A stretch of DNA of 64,000 nt from Pseudacidovorax sp. RU35E (GTDB lineage: Bacteria; Pseudomonadota; Gammaproteobacteria; Burkholderiales; Burkholderiaceae_C): contig NZ_FTMY01000008.1 of NCBI RefSeq assembly GCF_900156165.1, forward strand, positions 1 to 64,000, written 5' to 3'. How positions within the stretch are numbered: the first letter of the stretch is position 1; each line of letters opens with the position of its first letter. The notes under the pieces are model-generated. The model ran no database searches and was not told where the DNA came from. It saw only the letters and a list, made by a program, of their open reading frames with translations. The position numbers and the translations under genes were made by a program. Shown piece after piece: positions 30,543-51,027 of this stretch.

Positions 30543-31844
30543 TCAGTGACCCGGCAGGTAGATGTACTTGAAGAGGAAGATCCCGCCGATGACCCACACC
30601 ATCCAGTGCGCCTCGCGCGCCCGGCCGGTGAGCAGCTTCAGCACCGCATAGCTGATGAAGCCGAAGGCCAGGCCATTGGCGATGGAATAGGTGAAGGGCA
30701 TGGCCAGCGCGGTGATGGCCGCGGGGATGACCTCGGTGGTCTCGTTCCAGTCCAGTTCGGTCAGCTCCCTCAGCATCAAACATGCCACGAAGAGCAGGGC
30801 CGGCGCCGTCGCATAGGCCGGCACCACGCCGGCCAGCGGCGCGATGAACAGGCAGGCCAGGAAGAGCACCGCCACCGTCAGCGCCGTGAGCCCCGTGCGG
30901 CCGCCGGCCTGCACGCCCGCCGCGCTCTCCACATAGGCCGTGGTGCTGGAGGTGCCCAGCAGCGAGCCCGCGAAGATGGCGCCCGAATCGGCCAGCAGCG
31001 CCTTGTTGAGCCGGTCCATCTTGCCCGGCACCAGCAGGCCGGCGCGCTTGGCCACGCCCATCAGCGTGCCGGTGGCATCGAACAGCTCGACCAGGAAGAA
31101 CACGAGGATCACGTTCAGGATGCCGCCCGCCAGCGCACCCTTGATGTCCAGCTGCAGCAGCGTGGGCGCGATGGACGGCGGCGCCGACACCACGCCCTTG
31201 AACTCGTTGCCGGCGAAGAAGAAGCTGGCCAGCGTCACGGCCACGATGCCGATCAGGATGGCACCCGGCACCTTGAGCCGGTCCAGCATCACGATCAGGA
31301 AGAAGCCCAGCACCGCCAGCACGGCCGCGGGCTGGTGAAGGTCGCCCAGCGTGACGTAAGTAGCCGGCGAGGCGGCGACGATGCCCGCACTCTTGAGCGC
31401 GATCAGCGCCAGGAAGAGGCCGATGCCCACCGTGATGGCATAGCGCAGCGACAGCGGGATGCCCCGGATGATCAGCTCGCGGATGCGGAACAGCGTCACC
31501 AGCAGGAACAGGCAACCCGAGACGAACACCGCCCCCAGCGCTGCCTGCCAGGTGAAGCCCATGTGCTGCACCACCCCGTAGGCGAAGTAGGCGTTCAGGC
31601 CCATGCCCGGCGCCAAGGCGATCGGGTAGTTGGCATACAGGCCCATGATGGCCGAGCCCAGGGCGGCGATCACGCAGGTGGCGACGAAGACGGCCTCCTT
31701 CGGCATGCCTGCATCACCCAGGATCGAGGGGTTGACGAAGATGATGTAGGCCATCGTGAGGAAGGTGGTCAGGCCTGCCAGCAGTTCGGTGCGCACGGTC
31801 GTGCCGTGCTCCTGCAGCTTGAACAGCCGCTCGATCGCATTCAT
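30543..31844 (-). CDS. AzgA-family purine permease (adenine/guanine/hypoxanthine)
   Basis: A 433-residue inner-membrane proton symporter of the NCS2 superfamily, AzgA branch, with about 12 to 14 hydrophobic segments. ERLFKLQEHGTTVRTELLAG at the N-terminus, TMAYIIFVNPSIL, ALAPGMGLNAYFAY and the TSSTTAYVESAAGVQAGGRT signature are diagnostic and match E. coli AdeP/GhxP. It probably imports adenine, guanine or hypoxanthine for adenine deaminase and XdhAB. It starts 45 bp after the LysR gene and precedes the ABC importer by 74 bp. Confidence 0.93.
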   Translation of the reverse strand: MNAIERLFKLQEHGTTVRTELLAGLTTFLTMAYIIFVNPSILGDAGMPKEAVFVATCVIAALGSAIMGLYANYPIALAPGMGLNAYFAYGVVQHMGFTWQAALGAVFVSGCLFLLVTLFRIRELIIRGIPLSLRYAITVGIGLFLALIALKSAGIVAASPATYVTLGDLHQPAAVLAVLGFFLIVMLDRLKVPGAILIGIVAVTLASFFFAGNEFKGVVSAPPSIAPTLLQLDIKGALAGGILNVILVFFLVELFDATGTLMGVAKRAGLLVPGKMDRLNKALLADSGAIFAGSLLGTSSTTAYVESAAGVQAGGRTGLTALTVAVLFLACLFIAPLAGVVPAYATAPALLFVACLMLRELTELDWNETTEVIPAAITALAMPFTYSIANGLAFGFISYAVLKLLTGRAREAHWMVWVIGGIFLFKYIYLPGH

Positions 31845-31889: not shown

Positions 31890-32831
31890 TCAGGGGCCGC
31901 CGGGCTGACGCAGCGAGGCGGCCGCGTTCTTGACCTGCTCGCGCAGCCATTGCGCCGCACTCGACGAATGCGTGCGCTCGTGCCAGAGCTGGTAATAGAG
32001 CAGGCGCGGCAAGGTGGCCGGGCAGTCGAGGATGCGCACCGGCAGCTGCTGCGCGAAGCGCTCGCAGAACTGGCGCCCCGTGGTCAGCACCAGCAGGCTG
32101 CTGGCCACCATCTGCGGGATCAGGCTGAAGTGCGCGCAACGCGCCGTGATGTTGCGCTGCCGGCCGATGGCATCGAGCAGCTGGTCGATGATGCCGCGCG
32201 CGCCTGGGTGCGTGGGCGTGGGCGCGATGTGTTCGGCCTCCAGCCAGGTCTCGAGGTCCCAGCCGCGCCGCACCGCGGGGTGTTCCTGGCTCACCATCGA
32301 CACGACCTCGTCGCCGAAGAGGCGCGACATGTGCAGGTCTTCCGGCGGCTTGAGCCAGTTGCCGATCACCAGGTCCAGCGTGCCTTCGGCCAGGTGGGCG
32401 TGGTAGTCGGAGTCGGAGGAGAGCGGATGGATCTCGATGCGCGTGAGCGGCGCGAGCCGCTTGATCTGCGTCACCACCAACGGCAAAAACAGCGGGTCGA
32501 GGTAGTCGTTGGCGGCGATGCGGAAGGTGGTGGCCGCCGTCTGGGGCTCGAAGCCGCGCACATCGGAGAACAGCATCTCGGCCGCCCGCAGGATGCTGGC
32601 GGCGGGCTCGATCATGCGCAGGCCCGCCTCGGTCGGCACCATGCCCGAGCCCGACCGCACCAGCAGGGGATCGCCCGACAGCTCGCGCAGCCGCTTGAGC
32701 GCCGCCGAGACGGCCGGCTGGTACATGCCCAGCCGCAGGGCAGCGCGCGAGACGCTGCGGTCGGTGAGCACGGTGTAGAGCACCCGGATGAGGTGCAGAT
32801 CGATCTTGTCGAAGAGGGCCTGGTCTCGCAT
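31890..32831 (-). CDS. LysR-family transcriptional regulator (purine cluster)
   Basis: A 313-residue LysR regulator. The N-terminal winged helix reads DLHLIRVLYTVLTDRSVSRA then ALRLGMYQPAVSAALKRL, and an effector-binding domain follows from about residue 95 (TTFRIAANDYLDPLFLPLVV). The subtype resembles NodD/NahR-like LysR proteins. It sits between xdhB and azgA on the same strand, so it is a good candidate regulator of this purine cluster. Its target may be the palindromic region upstream of xdhA (37111-37174); this is inference. Confidence 0.88.
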   Translation of the reverse strand: MRDQALFDKIDLHLIRVLYTVLTDRSVSRAALRLGMYQPAVSAALKRLRELSGDPLLVRSGSGMVPTEAGLRMIEPAASILRAAEMLFSDVRGFEPQTAATTFRIAANDYLDPLFLPLVVTQIKRLAPLTRIEIHPLSSDSDYHAHLAEGTLDLVIGNWLKPPEDLHMSRLFGDEVVSMVSQEHPAVRRGWDLETWLEAEHIAPTPTHPGARGIIDQLLDAIGRQRNITARCAHFSLIPQMVASSLLVLTTGRQFCERFAQQLPVRILDCPATLPRLLYYQLWHERTHSSSAAQWLREQVKNAAASLRQPGGP

Positions 32832-32910: not shown

Positions 32911-35343
32911 TCAGGCGTCGGCAGACGCGGCCTGGACCGCGGTGAGTGCACGCAGAATCGCTTCGCTGGTGGCCGGTGCCCGCAGCGGAGGCTCGATCCG
33001 GTGGCCGCCCGCCGCGGACACGGCGTCGCGGATGGCGAAGAACACCGAGAAGGGCAGCAGCAGCGGCGGCTCGCCGACAGCCTTGCTGCGGTGGATGGAG
33101 TCCTCGGCGTTGGGGCCGTCGAAGAGCCGCACGTTGAACACCGGCGGGCAATCGTTGGCCGTGGGGATCTTGTAGGTGCTGGGCGCGTGGGTCAGCAGCT
33201 TGCCGTTGCCCGGATGCCAGACCAGCTCTTCGGTGGTGAGCCAGCCCATGCCCTGGATGAAGGCCCCTTCGACCTGGCCGATGTCGACGGCCGGATTGAG
33301 CGAGCGGCCGGCGTCGTGCAGCACGTCGGCGCGCAGCAGCTTCCATTCGCCGGTGAGGGTGTCGATGACCACCTCGCTCACCGCCGCGCCATAGGCGAAG
33401 TAGTAAAAGGGATGGCCCTGCATGGTCTGTGAGTTCCAGTGCAGGCCGGGCGTGCTGTAGAAGCCGTCGGACCACAGCTGCACCCGGTCGGTGTAGGCCT
33501 CGGCCACCAGCGTGGCGAAGGTGAGCTCGCGCCCGGCCACCTGCACCTTGCCGTTGGCGAAGCGCACCGCATCGGGCGTGCCGCCATGGCGACGCGCAGC
33601 GAAGTCGGCCAGCCTTTCGCGGATCTGCCGCGCGGCGTCCTGCGCGGCCTTGCCGTTGAGATCGGCACCCGTGGAGGCGGCCGTGGCGGAGGTGTTCGCC
33701 ACCTTGGTCGTGTCGGTGGCCGTGGCGCGAACGCGCTCGAATTCCACCCCCAGTTCATGCGCGACCACCTGCGCCACCTTGGTGTTGAGGCCCTGACCCA
33801 TTTCGGTGCCACCGTGGTTCACCAGAATGGAGCCGTCGGTGTAGACATGCACCAAAGCGCCGGCCTGGTTGAAGTGCGGCACGTTGAAACTGATGCCGAA
33901 CTTGATCGGCGTGAGTGCCATTCCCCGCTTGAGCACCGGACTCTTGGCGTTGAAGGCCTCGATGGCCTCGCGCCGTTCGCGATAGTCGCTCGAAGCCTCG
34001 AGCTGGCCCACGAGTTCGTGGATCACGTTGTCGCGCACCGTCTGGCCGTAAGGCGTGACATTGCGCTCGGTCTTGCCGTAGAAGTTGGCACGGCGCACAT
34101 CCAGTGCATCGCGGCCGAGCTGCCGGGCGATGGAATCGAGCACGTATTCCACTGCAATGGCGCCTTGTGGCCCGCCGAAGCCGCGGAACGCGGTGTTGCT
34201 CTGGGTGTTGGTGCGGCCCGAGAAGCCATGCATGCTCACCTCGGGCAGCCAGTAGGCGTTGTCGAAGTGGCACAGGGCGCGGGTCATCACCGGGCCGGAA
34301 AGATCGGCCGAGTGGCCCGCGCGCGAGACCATGCTGATCTCGGCGCCGAGGATGCGGCCTTCGTCGTCGAAGCCCACTTCGTACTCGTACCAGAAGCAGT
34401 GACGGCGGCCGGTGATGAGGAAGTCGTCGTCGCGGTCGGGGCGCAGCTTGACCGGCCGGCGCAGCTTGTTGGCCGCCACGGCTGCAATGCAGGCGAACAG
34501 GCCCGACTGCGATTCCTTGCCGCCGAAGCCGCCGCCCATGCGTCGGCATTCGATATGCACCTCGTTGGAATGCAGGTGCAGCGCATGCGCCACCAGGTGC
34601 TGCATTTCGGTGGGATGCTGGGTCGAGCAGTAGACCTGCATCGTCCCGCCCTCCTTCGGGATGGCGTAGCTGATCTGGCCTTCGAGGTAGAACTGCTCCT
34701 GGCCGCCGACATCGATCTGGCCGGTGAGGCGGTGCGGCGCGGCCTCGATGGCGGCACGCACGGCGATCCCCTTGTCGCTGCGGGCCAGGTGCATGGGCGG
34801 CACCACGTACTGGCCGCGGGCATGGGCCTGCTGCGGCGTCAGCACCGGCTCGGCCGGCACCACGCGGGCCGCTTCCTTGGCGCGGGCAGCAGCGCGGCGG
34901 GCCTCGGTGCGGGTACGGGCGATCACGGCGAACAGCGGCTGACCGAGGAAGCGGATCTCGCCATCACAGAGTAATGGATCGTCGTGCACGATCGAGCCGC
35001 AGTCGTTGGCACCGGGAATGTCGTCGGCCACGATCACGTCCACCACGCCGGGCATGGCCCGGATGGCGTCCAGGTCCAGGCCTTCCAGGCGTCCGGCCGC
35101 CACGGGCGACAGGCCCAGCGCGCAGTGCAGCGTTCCGGCCAGCTCGGGCAGGTCGTCGGTGTAGGTGGCCTCGCCGGCCACGTGCAGATGGGCGGACTCG
35201 TGGGGACGGCTGATGCCCACGCGCGCCCCCTGCGCCAGGGCCTGGGCCTCGGCATCGGTGTCGATGCGGGCGGCCGTGTTGGCGGCGTAGTCGGCAAAGG
35301 CCTCGGCAGACTGCAGCAGGGCGGGGTCGATCGGCTTGTTCAT
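32911..35343 (-). CDS. xdhB: Xanthine dehydrogenase molybdopterin-binding subunit
   Basis: An 810-residue large subunit that oxidises hypoxanthine to xanthine and then urate at the molybdenum cofactor. ECRRMGGGFGGKESQSG, RGFGGPQGAIAVEY and the GTEMGQGLNTKVAQVVA segment bind the cofactor, and the catalytic glutamate is in KAVGEPPLLLPFSVF near the C-terminus. Length fits the bacterial two-subunit enzyme. It starts 3 bp after xdhA. The accessory XdhC gene, which usually follows and inserts sulfurated cofactor, is missing here; a LysR gene is found instead. Confidence 0.96.
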   Translation of the reverse strand: MNKPIDPALLQSAEAFADYAANTAARIDTDAEAQALAQGARVGISRPHESAHLHVAGEATYTDDLPELAGTLHCALGLSPVAAGRLEGLDLDAIRAMPGVVDVIVADDIPGANDCGSIVHDDPLLCDGEIRFLGQPLFAVIARTRTEARRAAARAKEAARVVPAEPVLTPQQAHARGQYVVPPMHLARSDKGIAVRAAIEAAPHRLTGQIDVGGQEQFYLEGQISYAIPKEGGTMQVYCSTQHPTEMQHLVAHALHLHSNEVHIECRRMGGGFGGKESQSGLFACIAAVAANKLRRPVKLRPDRDDDFLITGRRHCFWYEYEVGFDDEGRILGAEISMVSRAGHSADLSGPVMTRALCHFDNAYWLPEVSMHGFSGRTNTQSNTAFRGFGGPQGAIAVEYVLDSIARQLGRDALDVRRANFYGKTERNVTPYGQTVRDNVIHELVGQLEASSDYRERREAIEAFNAKSPVLKRGMALTPIKFGISFNVPHFNQAGALVHVYTDGSILVNHGGTEMGQGLNTKVAQVVAHELGVEFERVRATATDTTKVANTSATAASTGADLNGKAAQDAARQIRERLADFAARRHGGTPDAVRFANGKVQVAGRELTFATLVAEAYTDRVQLWSDGFYSTPGLHWNSQTMQGHPFYYFAYGAAVSEVVIDTLTGEWKLLRADVLHDAGRSLNPAVDIGQVEGAFIQGMGWLTTEELVWHPGNGKLLTHAPSTYKIPTANDCPPVFNVRLFDGPNAEDSIHRSKAVGEPPLLLPFSVFFAIRDAVSAAGGHRIEPPLRAPATSEAILRALTAVQAASADA

Positions 35344-35346
35344 CGT

Positions 35347-36924
35347 TCAGGCTCCGAAGGCAGGGGCATGGGGCATCACCGACCAGACGCTGGTCTCCAG
35401 CGCCTCCAGCGGTTCGTGGGCGCGCGTCTCGAGCCAGAAGCGCTGCAACAGGTTCTGTGCCACCTGCAGGCGGTAGTCGGCCGACGCGCGCAGGTCGGTC
35501 AGGGGCTTGAAGTCCTGGGCCAGGGCCGCCTTGGCGGCCTCCACCGCCTGCTGCGTCCAGGGCTGGCCGACGACGGCGGCCTCGGCCTGGGTGGCGCGGC
35601 GCACGGTGGCGGCCATACCGCCATACGCCAGGCGGATGCTGCGCACCACGTCGCCGTCGAGTTCGAGCGCGAAGCCGGCGCACAGGGCCGAGATGTCGCA
35701 GTCGAAGCGCTTGCTGATCTTGTAGCCGCGCAGCCGGCGCGCGAAGGCCGGCAACGGCAGCACGATGGCCTGCACGAATTCGCCGCTCTCCAGCTGGTTC
35801 TTCATGTAGTCGACGTAGAAGTCGGGCAGCGGCATGCGGCGCACGCGCGCTCCCCTGCGCAGTTCCACCTCGGCATCGAGCGCCATCAGGATGGGCGGCG
35901 AGTCGCCGATCGGCGAGCCATTGGCCACGTTGCCGCCCAGCGTGCCCGCGTGGCGGATCGGCGGCGAGGCGAAGCGCAGCCACACATCCTGCAGAGAGGG
36001 CGCGCGTTGCACGATGGCGGACCAGGCGTCCTCGAGCGACACGGCGGCGCCGATCCACAGTTCGTCCTCCTCCACCACGTCGATGCGCTTGAGCTCGGCC
36101 ACATTGCCGATGTAGAGGATGTCGCCCAGGTCGCGGAACTGCTTGTTGACCCACAGCCCGATGTCGGTGGAGCCGGCCAGCAGCCGGGCCTGGGGCTTGG
36201 CGGCGCGCAGTTCGGCGAAGGCGTCCAGGCTGGCGGGTGCGTGGAAGTGGTCGGTGCGCTGGCCCAGGGGAGCCGCGTAGTCGAAGGTGGCGTCGGTGCG
36301 CAGGGCCTGCAGCGCCTGCACCACCGGGGTGGTGTCCAGTCTGACCGGCGGCAGGTCGAACATCTTCTGGCCGGCGTCGAGGATGGGCCGGTAGCCGGTG
36401 CACCGGCACAGGTTGCCCGACAGATCGTCGGCCAGCTGCTGCCGCGTCGGCCGGGTGCCGCGCTCGCCGTGCTGCTCGTAGCTGGCCCACATCGACATCA
36501 CGAAGCCGGGCGTGCAGAAGCCGCACTGGGAGCCATGGCAGTCCACCATGGCCTGCTGGACCGGATGCAGTTGCTGCACAGGATGCTTGGAGTGGCGCTC
36601 GCCGTCGTGCACACAGGCCGTCTGCGCCTTCAGGTCCTCGACGGTGAACAGCGCCTTGCCGTGCAGCGTGGGCAGGAACTGGATACAGGCATTGACCGTC
36701 TGCAGCCTCAGCCCGCCGACGGCGCCCGTCTCGCCCTCGTCCGCCAATTCGCCGATGACCACGGTGCAGGCACCGCAGTCGCCCTCGTTGCACCCCTCCT
36801 TCGTTCCGGTGCAGCGTGCGTCCTCGCGCAGCCAGTCGAGCACGGAACGTGTCGGATGCACGCCGTCGACCGCCACCACGCGGCCGCGGTGGAAGAACTG
36901 AATGGGTTGGGTGGTGTGGGTCAT
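35347..36924 (-). CDS. xdhA: Xanthine dehydrogenase small subunit (2Fe-2S and FAD)
   Basis: A 525-residue electron-transfer subunit. The N-terminal plant-type 2Fe-2S site is EGCNEGDCGACTVV (Cys45, 50, 53), the second cluster has CHGSQCGFCTPGFV and GNLCRCTGYRPIL. The FAD-binding domain follows (LLAGSTDIGLWVNKQF; GGNVANGSPIGDSPP), then the CO-dehydrogenase-type C-terminal domain. It passes electrons from the molybdenum centre of XdhB to NAD. An in-frame ATG at 36942 would add six residues. No clear ribosome site decides between the two. Confidence 0.95.
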   Translation of the reverse strand: MTHTTQPIQFFHRGRVVAVDGVHPTRSVLDWLREDARCTGTKEGCNEGDCGACTVVIGELADEGETGAVGGLRLQTVNACIQFLPTLHGKALFTVEDLKAQTACVHDGERHSKHPVQQLHPVQQAMVDCHGSQCGFCTPGFVMSMWASYEQHGERGTRPTRQQLADDLSGNLCRCTGYRPILDAGQKMFDLPPVRLDTTPVVQALQALRTDATFDYAAPLGQRTDHFHAPASLDAFAELRAAKPQARLLAGSTDIGLWVNKQFRDLGDILYIGNVAELKRIDVVEEDELWIGAAVSLEDAWSAIVQRAPSLQDVWLRFASPPIRHAGTLGGNVANGSPIGDSPPILMALDAEVELRRGARVRRMPLPDFYVDYMKNQLESGEFVQAIVLPLPAFARRLRGYKISKRFDCDISALCAGFALELDGDVVRSIRLAYGGMAATVRRATQAEAAVVGQPWTQQAVEAAKAALAQDFKPLTDLRASADYRLQVAQNLLQRFWLETRAHEPLEALETSVWSVMPHAPAFGA

Positions 36925-37470
36925 GGAACTGTTTTGGGGCATCGTGCAGGCCACCGCGGTGCAACGCACAGGGCGGCCGTGAAGTTATTCGCAGTGGCGC
37001 ATCCGTGGATATCCGCCCGACCATATCGCTCATCCGGCAAACCGTATGCCGACAGGTCGGACAGCCCCTGCTTGAGCAGTTTCCGCGCCAGGGTCTCGAG
37101 CTGCGTCGGCACGTCTCTTGCATGACAAAGCAAGACGTTCAACAACGTTGACGTCATATAAGAGCACGTATAAGGCAAATCAGGGATTTCATATGTCACC
37201 ATTCCGCTTCTGCGCGCGGCTTCTGCGCGCCGCCTCCCCTCCTCGACGCTTTTCTTCCGCGTCGCGCATGCAACAGCCCGCCGATCCGACATCGGCCCGG
37301 CCCAGCGCCCTCCGCGGCTGAGGCCGCGGCTCCCACGCTTCCGACCCAGCTGCCCCCCGGCAAGTGCCTGGGCCTGCGCGGCCCATCCGTCCGTCGGTGC
37401 ACGGCCGTACGGGCGGCGTGGCTGCGCCCATTCCCGTTTTCCTCCAACAGCGCAACGCGCGCACAACATC
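36925..37470. promoter_or_regulatory. 546-bp divergent control region between xdhA and the NCS2-UraD gene
   Basis: No convincing gene lies here. Between 37111 and 37174 there are overlapping dyads: ACGTCTCTTGC/GCAAGACGT (37111-37138, 8-nt loop, 2-nt bulge) and TCAACAACGTTGA (37139-37151), a T-N11-A LysR-type box with TCAAC/GTTGA arms. TTGACG (37148) followed 15 nt later by TATAAG (37169) could be a rightward promoter, and an earlier TATAAG lies at 37157. The stretch 37190-37470 shows nothing I recognise; with a start at 37169 the fusion-gene leader would be almost 300 nt. Confidence 0.5.
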
Positions 37471-39399
37471 ATGAAAACTGCTGTCACACCGTCCACGCCA
37501 GCCTCGCGGCGTGTCCATCCCGTCGATGAAGTGCTGCCCATTCCCCAACTCGCCGCCTATGGCTTCCAGCACGTGCTCGCCTTCTATGCGGGCGCGGTGC
37601 TCGTGCCCATCATCCTGGCCGGCGCACTGGGGCTCAGCAGCGAGCAGCTGATCCACCTGATCAACGCCGACCTCTTCACCTGCGGCATCGCCTCGATCCT
37701 GCAGGCCTGGGGCGTCGGCAAGGTGGGCGTGCGGCTGCCGCTGCTACAGGGTGTCACCTTCACCGCCGTCAGCCCCATGATCGCCATCGGCCTGGCGGCA
37801 GGCGGGGGCGTCACCGGCCTGCTGGAGATCTACGGCTCGGTGCTGGTGGCCGGGTTGTTCACCTTCTTCGCGGCGCCCTACTTCGCACGGCTGATCCGCT
37901 TCTTCCCACCCATCGTCACGGGCTCGGTGATCCTGATCATCGGCATCGCCCTGCTGCCGGTGGCGGCCAACGACATCGTCGTCGGCAAGGGACCGAACGC
38001 CATCCAGAACCCGGTGCTGCTCAAGAACTGCCTGTACGCATTCGGCACGCTGGCGCTGATCGTGCTCATTCAGCGGCTGTTCACCGGCTTCATGGCCACG
38101 GTGGCCGTGCTGCTGGGCCTGGTGATCGGCACGCTGGTCGCATGGGCGCTGGGTGACGCGCACTTCGACAAGGTCGGCAGCTCGGCCTGGTTCGGCTACA
38201 CGTCGCCCTTCTATTTCGGCATGCCGACCTTCAGCATCACCGCGGTGGTCTCGATGCTGATCGTCATGTGCATCACCATGGTCGAGACGACCGGCGACGT
38301 CTACGCCACCGGCGAGATCGTGCGCAAGCGCATCGGCAGCGACGACATCGCGCGCGCGATCCGCGCGGACGGCGCGGCCACCTTCCTCGGCGGCGTGTTC
38401 AATTCCTTCCCCTACACCTGCTTTGCCGAGAACGTCGGCCTCGTGCGGCTCACCCAGGTCAAGAGCCGCTGGGTGGTGGTGGCCGCCGGCATCATCATGA
38501 TCGTGCTGGGCTCGCTGCCCAAGGCGGCGGCAATCGTCGAAGGCATTCCGCACCCGGTGCTGGGCGGCGCGGCGCTGGCCATGTTCGCGGCCGTGGCCGT
38601 GGTGGGCGTGCAGACGCTGTCGAAGGTGGACTTCAACGACCACCGCAACATCGTGATCCTGGGCACCAGCCTCGGCCTCGGCATGCTGGTGACGGCCCAG
38701 CCCTTCATCAGCACCGCCTTTCCGAAGTGGGCCGAGATCGTCTTCGGCAGCGGCATCACGCTGGGTGCGCTGACGGCCATCGCGCTGAACATCGTCTTCA
38801 ACCACATCGGCGGTGGCGCCCATACGGCCGTCGCCGGCCGGCCCGGCAGCCTGGTGAGCCTGGAGCAGGTCAACGGCATGAGCCGCAAGGAATTCAACGC
38901 CACCTTCGGCCCCCTGGTCCAGAACATGGACTGGGTGCTGGAGCGCGCCTATGCCGCACGCCCCTTTGCCAACACGTATGCCCTGCGCACATCCTTCCAG
39001 GACACCCTGCTGACCGGCACGCCCGAGCAGCAGCAGGCCCTGATGGCGGCCTTCCCCGACCTCGGCAGCGAGGGCGACGCCGCCAATGCCTACCTGCTCG
39101 ACCATGAGAAAGCCGGCATTGCGGCGATGTCTCAGGAGGAGGTGGCCACCATGGCACGCGCCTACCGGGCCCAGTTCGGCTTTCCGCTGATCGTCAGTGC
39201 CCGTGACGCGCATTACGAGCGCATGGTGCGCCAGGGCTGGGAGCGGCTCGGCAACGCCCCGGCGGTCGAGCGGGCTGCCGCGCTGGTAGAGATGGCCCGC
39301 ATCGCCAACTACCGCTTCGACGACCTGGTGGCCGACGCCAATCCGATCGTCAGCGCCCGCCTGCGCGCCTTCGACGCCAGCCCCGCCGGCGCCCACTGA
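37471..39399 (+). CDS. NCS2 nucleobase permease fused to an OHCU-decarboxylase-like domain
   Basis: A 642-residue fusion. Residues about 20-445 form an NCS2 nucleobase:cation symporter with some 12 to 14 membrane helices (AAYGFQHVLAFYAGAVLVPI; LPLLQGVTFTAVSPM; VFNSFPYTCFAENVGLVRLT), like uric acid/xanthine permeases. Residues about 455-635 match the 2-oxo-4-hydroxy-4-carboxy-5-ureidoimidazoline decarboxylase (UraD) fold: VNGMSRKEFNATFGPLVQNM, DWVLERAYAARPFAN, ALMAAFPDLGSEGD, RAQFGFPLIVSARD. In active UraD the HPDL motif supplies the catalytic His; here it is Phe528-Pro-Asp-Leu. Glu546 (HEKAG) may be the second catalytic residue. The tail is therefore probably inactive or altered. It is divergent from xdhAB, and transport of xanthine or urate is likely. 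Confidence 0.87.
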   Translation: MKTAVTPSTPASRRVHPVDEVLPIPQLAAYGFQHVLAFYAGAVLVPIILAGALGLSSEQLIHLINADLFTCGIASILQAWGVGKVGVRLPLLQGVTFTAVSPMIAIGLAAGGGVTGLLEIYGSVLVAGLFTFFAAPYFARLIRFFPPIVTGSVILIIGIALLPVAANDIVVGKGPNAIQNPVLLKNCLYAFGTLALIVLIQRLFTGFMATVAVLLGLVIGTLVAWALGDAHFDKVGSSAWFGYTSPFYFGMPTFSITAVVSMLIVMCITMVETTGDVYATGEIVRKRIGSDDIARAIRADGAATFLGGVFNSFPYTCFAENVGLVRLTQVKSRWVVVAAGIIMIVLGSLPKAAAIVEGIPHPVLGGAALAMFAAVAVVGVQTLSKVDFNDHRNIVILGTSLGLGMLVTAQPFISTAFPKWAEIVFGSGITLGALTAIALNIVFNHIGGGAHTAVAGRPGSLVSLEQVNGMSRKEFNATFGPLVQNMDWVLERAYAARPFANTYALRTSFQDTLLTGTPEQQQALMAAFPDLGSEGDAANAYLLDHEKAGIAAMSQEEVATMARAYRAQFGFPLIVSARDAHYERMVRQGWERLGNAPAVERAAALVEMARIANYRFDDLVADANPIVSARLRAFDASPAGAH

Positions 39400-39474: not shown

Positions 39475-40398
39475 TCAGGCCGGCGTCATGGCCTCGCCGA
39501 ACAGGCGCACGATCTCCCCGCGCAGCCAGCGGTTGGGCGCATCGTCCTCGAAGCGGCGGCTCCAGTGCAGAGCCACGCCGAAGTCGCGCAGCGGGAAGTC
39601 GGGCTCCACGATGGCGAAGCCGGCCCCCTCGCCGAAACTGCGCGCGATGTTGCGCGGCATGACCACGGCCAGATCGGTGGCGCGCACGATGGCGGGCAGC
39701 ACCATGAAATGCTCGGTCACGAGCCGCACACGCTCCTCCAGTTGCATCAACTGCAGGATGCGCAGGGTGTCGGCATGCGAGCGCACGGCCACGAACTCCA
39801 GCCCCTGCAGCGCAGCCAGCAGCGCCTTGCCACGCAGCGCCCGCCGCGCGAACGCGTGGCCGGCACGCACCAGCACGATGTAGCGATCCTGAAGCAGGTG
39901 CTGGTGACGCGTGTCCTTCACCTTGGGCAAAAAGCCGAAGGCCAGGTCGATGCGGCCTTCGTCCAGTGCGGTGGCGATGTCCTGCGGGCGCAGCGGCAGC
40001 GTCTCCAGCCGCACACCGGGCGCCAGCGCGCGCAGGTGCTGCATCAGCGGCGGCAGGAAGCGGCCCTCGCCGATGTCGCTCATGTGGATGCGGAAGGTCT
40101 TGCGCGAGCGGGCCGGGTCGAAGCGTTCGGGTTCGGCCACGGCCTCGTCCAGCGTGGCGAGCGCGGCCCGCACGGCCGGCGCCAGCCGCTCGGCCCGCGG
40201 TGTGGGCGCCACGCCGCCGGCCACCCGCGTGAACAGCGCATCGCCCAGCGCCAGCCGCAGCCGGGTCAGGCCGTGGCTGACCGCGGGCTGGGTCAGGCCC
40301 AGGACCTCGGCGGCGCGGCTCACATTGCGGGTGCGGTGCACGGCATCGAAGACGCGCAGCAGGTTGAGGTCCAGCTTTTCCATATGCACGCCGTTCAT
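39475..40398 (-). CDS. LysR-family transcriptional regulator (divergent from iorA)
   Basis: A 307-residue LysR protein. The helix-turn-helix lies in LDLNLLRVFDAVHRTRNVSR then AAEVLGLTQPAVSHGLTRLR. The effector domain begins near TFRIHMSDIGEGRFLPPLMQ. NahR/NodD-type LysR proteins of this shape often sense aromatic acids. It is transcribed away from iorA with 139 bp between the starts, so it probably controls iorA-iorB-bug-thioesterase. ATG 40398 has a GGAG 13 bases upstream; ATG 40383 (MEKLDLNLL) is the alternative. Confidence 0.88.
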   Translation of the reverse strand: MNGVHMEKLDLNLLRVFDAVHRTRNVSRAAEVLGLTQPAVSHGLTRLRLALGDALFTRVAGGVAPTPRAERLAPAVRAALATLDEAVAEPERFDPARSRKTFRIHMSDIGEGRFLPPLMQHLRALAPGVRLETLPLRPQDIATALDEGRIDLAFGFLPKVKDTRHQHLLQDRYIVLVRAGHAFARRALRGKALLAALQGLEFVAVRSHADTLRILQLMQLEERVRLVTEHFMVLPAIVRATDLAVVMPRNIARSFGEGAGFAIVEPDFPLRDFGVALHWSRRFEDDAPNRWLRGEIVRLFGEAMTPA

Positions 40399-40537
40399 AA
40401 CACTTAGCGGCTCCATTGCATTGAGGACATGCCCCAGGCGCCGCACACTCCGCGCTTTCGACAAGCGGCGCCCCACGCCGCCGTGGCCGTCACCGCTGGA
40501 TGGCGGCCCTGCATCCCCACGACGGAGAGACAAGAAC

Positions 40538-42691
40538 ATGGAAGTTTCCTTCAGCAAGGAAGTACAGGCGCTGCGTCTGGGCGCGGGTCAGACCTTCCAC
40601 GGCGAGGGCATCCTGGCCATCACCAAGGGCCTGCTGCAGGCCGGCGTCGCCTATGTGGGCGGCTACCAGGGCGCGCCGGTGTCGCACCTGCTGGACGTGA
40701 TGGTGCAGGGCCGCGACTACATGCAGGAGCTGGGCGTGCATGTCGAGGCCTGCTCGAACGAGGCATCGGCCGCGGCCATGCTGGGCGCCTCCATCCACTA
40801 CCCGCTGCGCGGCGCCGTGACCTGGAAGTCCATCGTCGGCACCAACGTGGCGGCCGATGCGCTGTCCAACCTGTCCTCACCGGGCGTGACCGGCGGCGTG
40901 CTGATCGTGGTGGGCGAGGACTATGGCGAAGGCGCCAGCGTGATCCAGGAGCGCACCCATGCCTATGCGCTCAAGTCCAGCCTGTGCCTGCTCGACCCGC
41001 GCCCGCACCTGCCGACCATGGTGCGCATGGTGGAGGAAGGCTTCAACCTCTCCGAGGCCTCGAGCATGCCCTGCGTGATGGAGCTGCGCATCCGCGCCTG
41101 CCATGTGCGCGGCAGCTTCGACTGCAAGGACAACCGCGCCCCGGCCGTCAGCACCCGCAGCCTCATGGAAGAGCCGGCCCGCTTCGACTACGAGCGCCTG
41201 GCCCATCCGCCCGTCACCTTCGGCCACGAGAAGCGCAAGAGCGCCGAGCGCATCCCGGCGGCGCAGCGCTACATCGCCGAGCACGGCCTGAACGAACTGA
41301 TGCCCGGCCCGCGCGAGGACCTGGGCATCGTGGTGCAGGGCGGCCTGTACAACGCCCTCATCCGCGCGCTGCAGCAGCATGGCCTCGCCGATGCCTTCGG
41401 CCAGAGCGAGATCCCGATCCTGGTGCTCAACGTCACCTACCCGCTGGTGCCGGACCAGATCGTCGACTTCGCCGCCGGCAAGCGCGCCCTGCTGGTGGTG
41501 GAGGAAGGCCAGCCCGAGTACATCGAGCAGGACATCGCCACCCTGCTGCGCCGCCGCGACCTGCAGACGCCGCTGCACGGCAAGGACCTGCTGCAGATGG
41601 CCGGCGAATACACCACCGAGGTGCTGACCCGCGGCCTGGCCACCTTCGCCGCGCGCTACCTGCCCGAGGGCGCCGGCCAGACTGGCACCGACTGGCTGGC
41701 CGCCAACGACGCGCGCCGCCGCGCCGTGGCCGAGCTGCTGGGCAAGCCGTTGCCGGGGCGGCCACCGGGCTTCTGCATCGGCTGCCCGGAGCGGCCGGTG
41801 TTCTCGGCCCTCAAGCTCGCGCAGCAGGAAGTGGGCAAGGTGCACATCGCGGCCGACATCGGCTGCCATGCCTTCGGCACCTTCGAGCCCTTCAGCGGCG
41901 GGCATTCGATCCTGGGTTACGGCATGAGCCTGGCCAGCCGCGCGGGCGTCTCGCCCATGATGCAGCGGCGGGTGCTGTCGATCATGGGCGACGGCGGCTT
42001 CTGGCACAACGGCCTGCTCACCGGCGTGCAGAGCGCGCTGTTCAACGGCGACGACGCCGTGCTGCTGATCTTCAAGAACGGCTACACCAGCGCCACCGGC
42101 ACGCAGGACATCATCTCCACGCCCGACGAGGACACCAAGGCCCGCGCCGAGGACAAGCAGCAGAGCCTGGCCCACAAGAACCACACCATCGAGGACACGC
42201 TGCGCGGCCTGGGCGTGAAGTGGATGCGCACCGTCCACACCTACGAGGTGGCGACCATGCGGGCCACGCTCACCGAGGCTTTCACGACGTCCTTCGAGGG
42301 CCTGAAGGTCATCATCGCCGAGGGTGAATGCCAGCTGGAGCGCCAGCGCCGCATCAAGCCCTGGCTCGCGCAGCTGCTCAAGAAGGGCGAGCGCGTGGTG
42401 CGCGTCAAGTACGGCGTGGACGAGGACGTGTGCAACGGCGACCACGCCTGCATCCGCCTGTCGGGCTGTCCCACGCTCACGCTCAAGGACAACCCCGACC
42501 CGCTCAAGGTGGACCCGGTGGCCACCGTCATCGACGGCTGCGTGGGCTGCGGCCTGTGCGGCGCCAACGCCCATGCGGCCACGCTGTGCCCCAGCTTCTA
42601 CCGGGCCGAGGTGGTGCGGAACCCGCGCTGGCACGAGCGGCTGCTGCATGGCCTGCAGTCGGCGCTGGTCAATGTCCTGCGTCCGGCGTGA
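40538..42691 (+). CDS. iorA: Indolepyruvate ferredoxin oxidoreductase, alpha subunit-like
   Basis: A 717-residue 2-oxoacid:ferredoxin oxidoreductase subunit. It has the pyrimidine-binding POR domain at the N-terminus (GEGILAITKGLLQAGVAYVG, GGYQGAPVSHLLD), a thiamine-diphosphate domain (FCIGCPERPVFSAL, IAADIGCHAFGTFEP, SIMGDGGFWHNGLLTGV) and a C-terminal ferredoxin-like segment. The enzyme converts aryl- or other 2-oxoacids plus CoA into acyl-CoA, CO2 and reduced ferredoxin. The first Cys cluster is unusual (CNGDHACIRLSGCP near 631); the second is CVGCGLC plus Cys near 668-683. IorB follows with overlapping or near-touching ends. The physiological 2-oxoacid is not known. Confidence 0.88.
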   Translation: MEVSFSKEVQALRLGAGQTFHGEGILAITKGLLQAGVAYVGGYQGAPVSHLLDVMVQGRDYMQELGVHVEACSNEASAAAMLGASIHYPLRGAVTWKSIVGTNVAADALSNLSSPGVTGGVLIVVGEDYGEGASVIQERTHAYALKSSLCLLDPRPHLPTMVRMVEEGFNLSEASSMPCVMELRIRACHVRGSFDCKDNRAPAVSTRSLMEEPARFDYERLAHPPVTFGHEKRKSAERIPAAQRYIAEHGLNELMPGPREDLGIVVQGGLYNALIRALQQHGLADAFGQSEIPILVLNVTYPLVPDQIVDFAAGKRALLVVEEGQPEYIEQDIATLLRRRDLQTPLHGKDLLQMAGEYTTEVLTRGLATFAARYLPEGAGQTGTDWLAANDARRRAVAELLGKPLPGRPPGFCIGCPERPVFSALKLAQQEVGKVHIAADIGCHAFGTFEPFSGGHSILGYGMSLASRAGVSPMMQRRVLSIMGDGGFWHNGLLTGVQSALFNGDDAVLLIFKNGYTSATGTQDIISTPDEDTKARAEDKQQSLAHKNHTIEDTLRGLGVKWMRTVHTYEVATMRATLTEAFTTSFEGLKVIIAEGECQLERQRRIKPWLAQLLKKGERVVRVKYGVDEDVCNGDHACIRLSGCPTLTLKDNPDPLKVDPVATVIDGCVGCGLCGANAHAATLCPSFYRAEVVRNPRWHERLLHGLQSALVNVLRPA

Positions 42692-42702
42692 GCGCGCCCG
42701 CC

Positions 42703-44361
42703 ATGCCGATCCCCACTTCCAACGCCGCGCCCGCCATGACCGACGCCACCCACCAACGCCCTCTCACCCTGCTGCTGTGCGCCCTCGGCGGCGAAGGCGG
42801 CGGCGTGCTCACCGAATGGCTGATCGAAGCCGCGCGCCATGCCGGCTATGCGGCGCAGAGCACCTCGGTGCCCGGCGTGGCCCAGCGCACCGGCGCCACC
42901 ACCTATTACGTCGAGGTCTTCCCGGTGCCGCTGGCGCAGTTACAGGGTCGGCAGCCGGTGTTCAGCCTGGTGCCGGCGCCGGGCGCGCTGGACGTGATCG
43001 TCTCCTCCGAACTGCTTGAGACCACGCGCCAGATCGCCAATGGCATGGCCGACCCGGCGCGCACCCAGGTGCTCACCTCGTCCAGCCGAAGCCTGACCAC
43101 GTCGGAGCGCATGGCGCTGGGCGATGGCCGGGCCGATGCGGCGCAGCTGCTGGAGGTGGTGCGCCGCTTCAGCCGCGCGCACCAGGTGCTGGACATGGCG
43201 ACGATGGCCCGCGAATGCGGCACCGTCATCAGCAGCATCATGTACGGCGCCATCGCCGGCAGCGGTGTGCTGCCCTGGCCGCGCGCGGCCTTCGAGGCGG
43301 CGATCCACGATCCGGCCTCGGGCAAGGCGCCGGGCGCCACGGCGGCGGCCAGCCTGCGCGGCTTTGCGCGTGCCTACGAAGCCGTCAACGCGCCGCGGCA
43401 GCAGGCCGCCTTCGTCGATGCGCTGCTGAAGGACCCGAAGGTGGAAGCGACGCCGGCCCCGACGCTGGCCCCCGAGCTGGCGAGCCGCTTTCCGGCTGCC
43501 GTGCACGAGCTGTTGGCCCTGGGCCATGCGCGCACGCGGGAGTACCAGGATGCCGCCTACGCTCGCCGCTACACGGACCGCCTGTCGCGCGTGCTCGATG
43601 CCGAACGCGCGTCCGACCCCGCGGGCGCGCAGGGCTGGGCCGTCACCCATGAGATGGCCCGCTGGCTGGCCCTGTGGATGGCCTTCGACGACATCGTGCG
43701 CGTGGCCGCGCTCAAGGCCCGCGGGAGCCGCGCCGTGCGGGTGCGCACCGAGGTCAAGGCCGGCGAGGCCGACCTGCTGCGCGTCTACGACCACTTCAAG
43801 CCCGGCGTGCCGGAGTTTGCCGCCCTGCTGCCCCCCGCCCTCGGCCGCCGGCTGCAGGACTGGGACCGCGCCCGCCAGCGCCGCGGCCAGTCGCCGTGGG
43901 CCCTGCCGCTGAAGGTGGGCAGCCATTCGGTCGTCGGCATGGCGTCGCTGCGGCTGCTGGCCAGCCTGCGCCGGCTGCGCCCCATCGGCAGCCGCTTCGC
44001 CGAGGAGCAGCGGCTGATCGAGCACTGGCTCGCCGCCGTCGAGGCCGGCGCGCGCGAGGACTGGGCCCTGGGCCACGAGCTCGCGCTGTGCGGCCGGCTG
44101 ATCAAGGGCTACGGCAGCACCAACGAGCGCGGCAAGGCCAACCTGCTGCACATCGTCGACCACCTGGCCCGCAGCCCCGGCCGCACACCGGCCGAGCGGG
44201 CGCAGGCCATCGCCAAGGCCCGCGAGGCCGCGCTGGCCGACGAGGCCGGCACCGCCCTCGACGCCGCGCTGCGGGCCCACGGCGCGCCGCCGCGGCCGGT
44301 GGCCGAGCAGCCGATCCGCTGGATGCGCCGGCCGCCCCGCTCGCAAGGCCAGAGCGCCTGA
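42703..44361 (+). CDS. iorB: Indolepyruvate oxidoreductase, beta subunit-like (with DUF6537-type extension)
   Basis: A 552-residue protein, much longer than archaeal IorB (about 200). Residues about 15-200 form the POR-gamma-type CoA domain (LLCALGGEGGGVLTEWLIEA; GVAQRTGATTYYVEVFP). The C-terminal half, with LGHARTREYQDAAYARRYTD and LLRVYDHFKPGVPEFAALLP, resembles the DUF6537 region found in the large fused indolepyruvate oxidoreductases. It should form the complex with IorA. Starts at GTG 42688 (overlapping the iorA stop by 4 bp), ATG 42703 or ATG 42736 are all possible without a clear ribosome site. Confidence 0.85.
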   Translation: MPIPTSNAAPAMTDATHQRPLTLLLCALGGEGGGVLTEWLIEAARHAGYAAQSTSVPGVAQRTGATTYYVEVFPVPLAQLQGRQPVFSLVPAPGALDVIVSSELLETTRQIANGMADPARTQVLTSSSRSLTTSERMALGDGRADAAQLLEVVRRFSRAHQVLDMATMARECGTVISSIMYGAIAGSGVLPWPRAAFEAAIHDPASGKAPGATAAASLRGFARAYEAVNAPRQQAAFVDALLKDPKVEATPAPTLAPELASRFPAAVHELLALGHARTREYQDAAYARRYTDRLSRVLDAERASDPAGAQGWAVTHEMARWLALWMAFDDIVRVAALKARGSRAVRVRTEVKAGEADLLRVYDHFKPGVPEFAALLPPALGRRLQDWDRARQRRGQSPWALPLKVGSHSVVGMASLRLLASLRRLRPIGSRFAEEQRLIEHWLAAVEAGAREDWALGHELALCGRLIKGYGSTNERGKANLLHIVDHLARSPGRTPAERAQAIAKAREAALADEAGTALDAALRAHGAPPRPVAEQPIRWMRRPPRSQGQSA

Positions 44362-49821: not shown

Positions 49822-51027
49822 TCAGTTCGTCTTCGCGCCGCCCTGGAACCAGCGGCCGATCAAGGCCCGCTCGGCCTCGGTGATGCCGGTGGCGTTGTTC
49901 ATCGGCATGATCTTCGTCACTACCACCTGCTGGTAGACGGCCTGCGCATGCGCGGCCACCTGGTCGGGTGAGTCGAGGCGCACGTTCTTCATCTGAACGG
50001 CGGCGCCGTGGCACAGGTAGCAGCGCTGCTCCAGCACCTTCTGCACCTCGGCATAGGCGACCGGCGCGGCCTGCGCGGCGGCGGGTTGCGGGGCAACCGG
50101 CGCAGGCTTCATCCAGACGATGGTCAGGCCCAGCACGGCGACGCCGAGCATGGCGTAGGGCAGCGGGTGCTTTGCGTTGCCCAGCTTCCAGCGATGGCGC
50201 ACCACGAAGAACTGCCGGATGGCGGCGCCGCCCAGCATGATCAGCAGCAGCACGATCCAGTTCTGCGGATGCGTGTAGGTGAAGCTGTAGTGGTTGCTCA
50301 GCATCGCGAACAGCACCGGCAGCGTGAAGTAGGTGTTGTGCACGCTGCGCTGCTTGCCGCGCTGGCCGTGGATGGGGTCCACCGGCTTGCCCTCGCGCAG
50401 GGCCGCCACGCTCTTGCGCTGGCCGGGGATGATCCAGAAGAACACGTTCGCGCTCATGGTCGTGGCCATCATGGCGCCCACCAGCAGGAAGGCCGCCCGG
50501 CCCGCGAACCACTGGCAGGCCAGCCAGGCCGCAAAGGCGATGAAGAGGGCGATCAGCACGCCGACGATGGTGTCGCCGTTCTTGCGCCGGCCGAAGATCT
50601 GGCAGATGGCGTCGTACACCATCCAGAACACGACGAAGAAGGCGAGCGCCACGGCGATGGCGGCGCCGGGCTGCCAGTCCATCTTGCTCTTGTCGATGAG
50701 ATAGGTGCTGGCGTTCCACAGGTACGACACCGTGAAGAGCGCGAAGCCGCTCAGCCAGGTGGAGTAGCTTTCCCAGAAGGACCAGTGCAGGTGCTCCGGG
50801 ATCTTCTTCGGCGCCACCGCGTACTTCTGCATGTTGTAGAAGCCGCCGCCATGCACGGCCCATTGCTCGCCGCCGACACCCTTGTCGAGCGACTCCGCGT
50901 CCTTGGGCTTCTCGAGGCTGTTGTCCAGCATCACGAAGTAGAAGGAGGCACCGATCCAGGCGATCGCGGTGATGACGTGGAGCCAGCGCAGCAGCAGGTT
51001 GGCCCAGTCGAGGTAATAGCTTTCCAT
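49822..51027 (-). CDS. puuD: Urate hydroxylase PuuD (membrane urate oxidase with cytochrome c domain)
   Basis: A 401-residue integral membrane protein. Residues about 1-310 contain roughly eight hydrophobic segments (WLHVITAIAWIGASFYFVML, then HGGGFYNMQKYAVAPKKIPE and HNTYFTLPVLFAMLSNHYSF). The C-terminal domain has a haem c site, QRCYLCHGAAVQ, and the axial-ligand region TKIMPMNNATG. This is the arrangement of PuuD, which oxidises urate to 5-hydroxyisourate and passes electrons to the respiratory chain rather than to oxygen. It takes the product of XdhAB and 8-oxoguanine deaminase. 5-Hydroxyisourate hydrolase is not in the window. Confidence 0.95.
   Translation of the reverse strand: MESYYLDWANLLLRWLHVITAIAWIGASFYFVMLDNSLEKPKDAESLDKGVGGEQWAVHGGGFYNMQKYAVAPKKIPEHLHWSFWESYSTWLSGFALFTVSYLWNASTYLIDKSKMDWQPGAAIAVALAFFVVFWMVYDAICQIFGRRKNGDTIVGVLIALFIAFAAWLACQWFAGRAAFLLVGAMMATTMSANVFFWIIPGQRKSVAALREGKPVDPIHGQRGKQRSVHNTYFTLPVLFAMLSNHYSFTYTHPQNWIVLLLIMLGGAAIRQFFVVRHRWKLGNAKHPLPYAMLGVAVLGLTIVWMKPAPVAPQPAAAQAAPVAYAEVQKVLEQRCYLCHGAAVQMKNVRLDSPDQVAAHAQAVYQQVVVTKIMPMNNATGITEAERALIGRWFQGGAKTN

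What the first reader, a model, noticed from the sequence alone, without database searches (positions are those of the whole stretch)
37471..39399. NCS2 purine permease fused to a UraD-like domain lacking the catalytic histidine
One uninterrupted 642-codon frame joins a complete nucleobase symporter to a domain that aligns along its length with OHCU decarboxylase (NGMSRKEF, DWVLERAYAARPFA, FPDLG, FGFPLIV). In known UraD enzymes the His of HPDL is catalytic; here codon 528 is Phe, while an acidic residue (Glu546) remains. A transporter tied to a degenerate downstream enzyme suggests a sensing, gating or scaffolding role for urate-pathway intermediates rather than catalysis. It is divergent from xdhAB, so the pathway link is strong.
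Basis: partly seen in the sequence, partly recalled or inferred. Interest (0 to 1): 0.72.

Follow-up and report, generated by a model that had tools for sequence, protein, structure and literature searches.

The report
Purine importer with dead-enzyme tail
A bacterial importer of the purine-carrier family has, as a built-in tail, a copy of an enzyme of uric acid breakdown that lacks the key catalytic residue but is still well conserved, so the tail most likely senses or steers the pathway instead of doing chemistry.

Summary
The 642-codon frame is real: a complete NCS2 permease joined to a domain with the OHCU decarboxylase (UraD) fold (Pfam 8e-30; best PDB match zebrafish UraD). Phe528 replaces the catalytic His. 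This is a family trait: 0 of 190 tail-type domains examined keep His (165: F 107, Y 56, L 2; 25: Y 25). For all 80 fusion loci fetched (of 210 found) a separate UraD is in the locus (63) or elsewhere in the genome (17). In actinobacteria it usually lies directly downstream, in a uricase/HIU-hydrolase operon. The tails form one clade in a quick tree (SH-aLRT 99), are under purifying selection (median dN/dS 0.135) and keep Arg161. The main fused clade also has Glu at a permease-site position that is Gln in 11 unfused pbuX-type comparators. Best reading: a pseudoenzyme serving as cytosolic ligand-reading, dimer-coupling regulator of a urate-pathway importer. Loss of UraD catalysis is well supported by sequence; sensing is inferred. 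Ten paper searches found no description of the fusion.

The parts
37471..39399 (+). Fused gene: NCS2 permease plus pseudo-UraD tail, 642 aa
37558..38802 (+). NCS2 permease part (TIGR03173 pbuX / PF00860)
   Evidence: fold matched to UraA and UapA
38428..38430 (+). Glu320; aligns with the Glu of UraA's YGEN motif (Glu290 and its role recalled); Gln in 11 unfused pbuX-type comparators, Glu in the own uracil-permease-like NCS2
   Evidence: E 104, Q 3, D 1 of 108 fused proteins
38872..39318 (+). UraD-like (OHCU_decarbox) domain, residues 468-616
   Evidence: AlphaFold2 model pLDDT 79.9, pTM 0.72; Foldseek top 14 all UraD-type or allantoin synthase
39052..39054 (+). Phe528 at the catalytic His67 position (zebrafish numbering)
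39100..39105 (+). Asp544-His545 at the Glu87-Gln88 positions
   Evidence: D 100/105, H 99/105
39313..39315 (+). Arg615, the conserved Arg161 position of UraD
   Evidence: 105/105; 81/81 tails, 63/63 separate UraD
39328..39348 (+). VADANPI C-terminal motif of the main fused clade; not in the separate UraD nor in the early-splitting fused tails aligned
35347..36969 (-). xanthine-dehydrogenase-type 2Fe-2S/FAD subunit, divergent
32911..35343 (-). xanthine-dehydrogenase-type molybdopterin subunit
31890..32831 (-). LysR regulator beyond the xdh genes
30543..31844 (-). second, unfused PF00860 permease
39475..40557 (-). LysR regulator downstream of the fused gene (a homologous frame is downstream in Variovorax L011)
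49822..51027 (-). PuuD-type urate oxidase (PF06181, 433 bits)

Best explanation
The tail is a UraD-derived pseudoenzyme that acts in cis on a urate-pathway importer. Shown here: UraD fold; loss of the catalytic His in every tail examined, with other pocket positions kept to varying degree (Arg161 throughout; Ser84 and Glu/Asp87 in the Rubrobacter branch); one clade of tails; purifying selection; a separate His-bearing UraD for all 80 loci fetched; operon with uricase and HIU hydrolase in actinobacteria. Inferred: the tail lies in the cytosol, pairs with the tail of the second permease protomer as UraD subunits pair (UraD and NCS2 dimers recalled), and binds an intermediate or product (OHCU, allantoin or urate) without turning it over, so that uptake is tuned to the capacity of the downstream enzymes. 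It sits where the STAS domain sits in SLC26 transporters, which share the permease fold. The window's host, of the genus that holds Pseudacidovorax loci L008-L010, has xdh genes beside the importer and PuuD about 10 kb away.
For: His absent in 165 of 165 and 25 of 25 tail-type domains; Phe and Tyr interchange, so a hydroxyl acid/base is not needed. Separate UraD keep His: 63 of 63, 27 of 27. Separate UraD for 80 of 80 loci: 63 in the locus, 17 elsewhere in the genome. Tails one side of a branch, SH-aLRT 99, 35 of 76 rows. dN/dS medians: permease 0.107, tail 0.135, neighbouring UraD 0.191 (227, 225, 197 pairs). Arg161 81/81; Ser84 25/25, Glu/Asp87 25/25 (E 21, D 4) in the Rubrobacter branch. 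Operon: UraD directly downstream on the same strand in 59 of 63 loci that hold one (47 within 200 nt plus 12 whose domain match begins at, or up to 4 nt before, the stop); URAH 65/80, UOX 44/80. The main fused clade also changes a permease-site residue. SLC26 structures are among the fold matches. Against a strict UraD partner: in 60 of 63 loci the UraD is of the HPRI type, a lineage that in the tree lies far from the tails (17 rows, split 100), and 15 of 18 proteobacterial loci have no UraD in the fetched flank, yet keep the tail.
Against: No ligand, transport or binding data. Pairing of tails is untested; pTM of the full model is 0.68, so the placing of the tail against the permease is unsure. 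Distribution is patchy: 4 of 15 genomes of the own genus and 0 of the other 85 genomes of that search, so the host genus can do without it. In the Pseudacidovorax/Variovorax pairs the tail changes faster (dN/dS 0.13-0.40). The main clade also altered Glu87 and Gln88, so ligand identity may have shifted. The permease tree splits the fused rows in two groups.
Confidence: 0.47

Rival explanations
1. Scaffold: the tail is a docking half that pairs with the catalytic UraD (and through it HIU hydrolase or uricase) at the membrane, so imported urate is handed to the enzymes and the unstable intermediates do not leak.
For: UraD gene directly downstream in 59 of 63 loci that hold one; four proteins carry pseudo-UraD and His-bearing UraD in one chain behind permease sequence (P0081, P0082, P0090 about 825 aa; P0091 a partial; Pfam sees two stretches in P0090 and P0081). 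A plant UraD-HIU hydrolase protein (TTL) interacts with the membrane receptor kinase BRI1 (PMC2834698, passages).
Against: In 60 of 63 loci the UraD is of the HPRI type, far from the tails in the tree; in 15 of 18 proteobacterial loci no UraD lies in the fetched flank, yet the tail stays.
Confidence: 0.2
2. Active enzyme with altered chemistry: His545 next to Asp544 takes over, or the tail acts on another compound.
For: D544 100/105 and H545 99/105 in the main set; many clade-specific conserved residues.
Against: His545 is Gln in five rows of the main set and Gln or Arg in early-splitting fused branches, while loss of His67 is universal among those examined; a separate UraD is present for all 80 loci.
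Confidence: 0.13
3. Structural part only: the tail serves folding, dimer stability or targeting of the permease and binds no small molecule.
For: Conservation of many residues not shared with UraD and of the VADANPI end; UraD is a dimer (recalled).
Against: Arg161 and the FP of FGFP are kept in 81 of 81; unfused permeases of the same family do without a tail (10 rows).
Confidence: 0.16
4. Decaying passenger left by a chance fusion.
For: Loss of the catalytic residue; patchy presence in the own genus (4 of 15).
Against: Purifying selection on the tail and a fold-wide set of conserved positions across phyla.
Confidence: 0.04

Closest known systems
OHCU decarboxylase UraD (PF09349, TIGR03164; zebrafish 2o70, Klebsiella 3o7h/5uou)
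   Same: fold, length, Arg161, FGFP stretch
   Different: catalytic His replaced by Phe/Tyr; Glu87 to Asp and Gln88 to His in most of the main clade; the window's tail scores 80.5 against NCBI's cut-off of 96.25, while the host's two other UraD score 168.3 and 167.2; fused to a permease
NCS2 xanthine/urate permeases (TIGR03173 pbuX; UapA 5i6c, UraA 3qe7)
   Same: complete permease, above the family cut-off, same fold
   Different: Glu320 where 11 unfused pbuX-type comparators have Gln; extra C-terminal domain
Msmeg_1293 of Mycolicibacterium smegmatis (named xanthine/uracil permease)
   Same: numbered next to msmeg_1294 OHCU decarboxylase, 1295 transthyretin and 1296 uricase; all four induced 3.5-4 fold in the tables at nitrogen limitation (PMC4617892, passages); phospho-Arg475 reported (PMC9604228, passages and section 8)
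   Different: its sequence was not fetched; that it is a fusion is inferred from gene order in related Mycolicibacterium loci and from a residue number beyond the permease part. The phospho-Arg is rarely conserved in its homologues (0.23%). The passages seen do not mention a UraD tail
SLC26 transporters with C-terminal STAS domain
   Same: same permease fold class with a cytosolic C-terminal domain
   Different: STAS and UraD are unrelated folds; the regulatory role of STAS is recalled
Plant allantoin synthase TTL (UraD-HIU hydrolase; 5z5m)
   Same: UraD domain in a multi-domain protein that interacts with a membrane protein
   Different: TTL shows UraD activity in vitro; two enzymes, no transporter

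Membership tests
OHCU decarboxylase (UraD) | UraD fold and Pfam gathering score | tested here: met
OHCU decarboxylase (UraD) | catalytic His of HPDL/HPEL/HPRI (role recalled) | tested here: not met
   Phe528; 0 of 190 tail-type domains have His; separate UraD 63/63 and 27/27 have it
OHCU decarboxylase (UraD) | Glu87-Gln88 pair | tested here: not met
   Asp544-His545
OHCU decarboxylase (UraD) | Arg161 | tested here: met
   Arg615
OHCU decarboxylase (UraD) | NCBI equivalog cut-off TIGR03164 | tested here: not met
   80.5 of 96.25 bits. Not a clean divider: of three other fused proteins tried, P0010 is below (85.9) but His-less P0113 (101.5) and P0169 (127.7) pass; of five His-bearing UraD, four pass (167-201) and the HPRI-type one (33.8) passes TIGR03180 instead
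OHCU decarboxylase (UraD) | decarboxylase activity | not testable with these tools
   needs assay
NCS2 / pbuX permease | family score and full length | tested here: met
   TIGR03173 503.9 over 414.15 bits, 1-407 of 407
NCS2 / pbuX permease | purine-site residues: Glu272, and Gln at 320 (roles recalled) | tested here: inconclusive
   Glu272 kept in 108/108; position 320 is Glu in 104/108
NCS2 / pbuX permease | urate or xanthine transport | not testable with these tools
   operon context only
Scaffold for UraD | physical contact with catalytic UraD | not testable with these tools
   gene adjacency and four tandem proteins only

The most novel reading that the evidence does not exclude
A family of metabolite-gated urate importers: a dead UraD domain, which binds but cannot decarboxylate the unstable intermediate OHCU (or its product allantoin), reports pathway load to the permease and sets uptake. 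The permease's purine site was retuned (Gln to Glu) in the main fused clade, and the whole unit then moved from actinobacteria into several proteobacterial lineages.
Probability: 0.33. Interest if true: 0.78.

Novelty: new variant of a known kind. Interest (0 to 1): 0.6.

Why it matters
It would be a clear case of an enzyme turned into a built-in sensor or regulator of the transporter feeding its own pathway. It also bears on annotation: several of these proteins are named OHCU decarboxylase by their sources although the tails examined lack the catalytic His, and others are named plain permeases although they carry the tail; two of the four fused proteins tested pass NCBI's UraD cut-off. The Glu320 of the main clade makes a substrate question directly testable.

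Tried and rejected
Rejected: sequencing or frame artefact (both domains in all 120 listed homologues). Rejected: the tail as the host's only UraD (two other PF09349 domains in the own genome, both with His; a separate UraD for 80 of 80 loci). Rejected as general: His545 as relocated catalytic His (Q or R elsewhere). P0091 first looked like a fused domain with His; that was a cut artefact: its pseudo-domain is not His and a second, His-bearing UraD follows. A search for free-standing copies (103-330 aa) gave 46 hits: many on short contigs or still bearing permease sequence, two of them ordinary UraD-HIU hydrolase (P0166, P0167); they were not checked one by one, so free-standing copies are not excluded. 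P0138 and P0163 have Leu at the His place; P0163 looks frame-broken. The antisense 550-aa frame was not followed. Gap values printed were wrong for some loci, because another frame was taken as the fused gene; recomputed. Tail pairing could not be tested: no coordinates were returned.

Rows dropped or not seen: one search used 105 of 121 proteins (length 580-700); one search used 108 (length 580-900, P0091 left out); one search kept 80 of 210; one search covered the genomes of 22 of the 80 loci (the 17 without UraD in the locus plus 5); one search lists 120 of 238, with a length filter. The 190 domains are 165 of the 167 proteins held (44 of them from the short-length search) plus 25. One search used pairs with permease identity of 86% or more and equal cut length, dS 0.05-1.5; pairs share species, and the UraD set holds only loci with UraD on the same strand, nearly all actinobacterial, so the three medians are not from the same pairs. 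Neighbour counts use a floor of 50 bits (60 for UraD domains). Trees are quick trees with SH-aLRT only and include the trait columns. On the permease tree the fused rows fall in two groups (24 rows, 100; and L127, L129 beside unfused L126, L128), so a simple single-fusion history is not shown. In one search the alignment around zebrafish 84-90 was gappy and gave no counts used here. The own uracil-permease-like NCS2 (L006), unfused, also has Glu at position 320.

Not in print: ten paper searches and passages of eleven papers (one section) gave no description of this fusion; only open-licence PMC papers are held. Nearest: a Rubrobacter xylanophilus table listing a permease beside a separate OHCU decarboxylase gene (PMC4016543, passage).

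Full report
Observation. The frame at 37471-39399 (+) is open for 642 codons. It holds PF00860 at 26-411 and PF09349 at 468-616, with TIGR03173 (pbuX) above its cut-off and the UraD equivalog TIGR03164 below its cut-off. As a control, the host's two other UraD domains pass that cut-off (168.3 and 167.2 bits), but so do two His-less fused proteins, P0113 and P0169, so the score alone does not divide the two kinds. AlphaFold2 of the tail with 45 sequences gives pLDDT 79.9 and pTM 0.72; the 14 best PDB matches are all OHCU decarboxylase or allantoin synthase (2o8i, rank 13, is titled only as an Agrobacterium protein). The full model (pLDDT 79.1, pTM 0.68) matches UraA and UapA, and 2o70 for the tail.

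Active site. Phe528 stands where UraD has its catalytic His (catalytic role recalled; the conservation is measured here). Across 105 full-length relatives the first alignment gave F 79, Y 25, H 1, the one H being a cut artefact. Over the 167 proteins then held, 165 tail-type domains carry F 107, Y 56, L 2 and no His. A third search from a Rubrobacter fusion added 25, all Tyr, with Ser at 84 in 25 and Glu or Asp at 87 in 25. Arg161 is kept: 105 of 105 (one of these rows, P0091, shows its other domain) and 81 of 81.

Spread and history. 80 of 210 relatives in GTDB representatives were fetched: 62 actinobacterial and 18 proteobacterial loci, from Pseudacidovorax, Variovorax, Bosea, Labrys, Solimonas and Nevskia to Gordonia, Williamsia, Rhodococcus and Mycolicibacterium (the division is mine, from record titles). 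The trait is patchy: in the search of 100 genomes (own genome and 99 relatives), 4 have the fused form, all among the 15 genomes of the own genus (told by score and open frame); in a sample of 119 genomes of the actinobacterial phylum, 22 have a permease match and the tails read there lie in 9. In a quick tree of 76 UraD domains the 35 fused tails are one side of a branch (SH-aLRT 99), in a group with the separate UraD genes of Rubrobacter-like actinobacteria; the proteobacterial tails lie inside the actinobacterial ones (16-row set 98, the proteobacterial group itself 93), which suggests transfer into proteobacteria. On the permease tree the fused rows are in two groups, so tail loss, a permease swap or more than one joining is needed.

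Context. In actinobacterial loci the common order is permease-tail, UraD, HIU hydrolase, then uricase or, by eye, a FAD-type oxidase. UraD is in the locus in 63 of 80, HIU hydrolase in 65, uricase in 44, a large molybdopterin dehydrogenase subunit in 52. Of the 63, 59 have UraD directly downstream on the same strand; the others are L012, L016, L020, L022. Four proteins carry a His-bearing UraD in the same chain after the tail. The 17 loci without UraD come from genomes that all have one elsewhere, and 27 of 27 separate domains read there have His. In the window the fused gene is divergent from xdh genes and a PuuD urate oxidase lies at 49822-51027; the own genome has two more UraD domains, one fused to an N-carbamoyl amino acid hydrolase-like part with HIU hydrolase nearby on C8, one on C13 without such a partner.

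Constraint. Pairwise dN/dS medians are 0.107 for the permease (227 pairs), 0.135 for the tail (225) and 0.191 for the neighbouring catalytic UraD (197, nearly all actinobacterial pairs). The tail is thus clearly under purifying selection, about as strongly as the working enzyme, though faster change is seen in the Pseudacidovorax/Variovorax pairs.

Permease. Position 320 aligns with the Glu of UraA's YGEN motif. It is Glu in 104 of 108 fused proteins (Q 3, D 1), and Gln in the own unfused pbuX-type paralogue and in the ten other unfused rows. The host's uracil-permease-like NCS2 has Glu too. Two early-splitting fused permeases have Gln and one has Gly. The change therefore marks the main fused clade (23 of 24 rows) and may mean another substrate or another protonation state.

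Mechanism. Loss of UraD catalysis is strongly indicated. Among roles, cis sensing or gating is preferred over scaffolding for two reasons: the UraD in the locus is usually of a distant lineage (60 of 63 of HPRI type; tree), and in proteobacteria the tail persists where UraD is elsewhere in the genome (15 of 18). Against this stand the gene adjacency and the tandem proteins, which favour contact with UraD. A C-terminal cytosolic domain on this transporter fold is known from SLC26/STAS (fold match; regulatory role recalled).

Literature. In M. smegmatis, msmeg_1293-1296 are induced together at nitrogen limitation (PMC4617892, passages; its running text gives uricase 2.8-fold where its table gives 3.78); growth on uric acid there depends on GlnR (PMC4222082, passages); Msmeg_1293 bears phospho-Arg475, a residue rarely conserved (PMC9604228, passages and one section). 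That Msmeg_1293 has this tail is inferred, not tested. Plant TTL, a UraD-HIU hydrolase, has both activities in vitro and interacts with BRI1 (PMC2834698, passages). Ten searches found no account of the permease-UraD fusion.

Noticed in passing
window 49822-51027 (-): PuuD-type membrane urate oxidase (PF06181) about 10 kb from the fused gene, giving the host a urate route.
   Followed up: partly
window 37471-39399, codon 320: Glu at a permease-site position that is Gln in 11 unfused pbuX-type comparators; shared by the main fused clade.
   Followed up: partly
L122 and L123: A fused (Glu320) and an unfused (Gln320) permease side by side with UraD, uricase and HIU hydrolase matches, suggesting two different substrates.
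   Followed up: no
P0081, P0082, P0090, P0091: Permease, pseudo-UraD and His-bearing UraD in one polypeptide (about 825 aa; P0091 is partial).
   Followed up: partly
P0113, P0169: His-less fused tails that pass NCBI's UraD equivalog cut-off (TIGR03164), a likely source of wrong names.
   Followed up: partly
window 39911-44361 (+): Two frames with TPP_enzyme_C and with POR plus DUF6537 next to the fused gene (indolepyruvate-oxidoreductase-like by eye), with homologous frames in L010, L011 and L013.
   Followed up: no
window 51319-57414 (-): 2031-aa CheA-like protein with three Hpt stretches, CheW and response regulator parts.
   Followed up: no
G000 C9:212050-213408: Unfused pbuX-type paralogue on the same contig, beside a frame that looks by eye like a TonB-type receptor.
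   Followed up: partly
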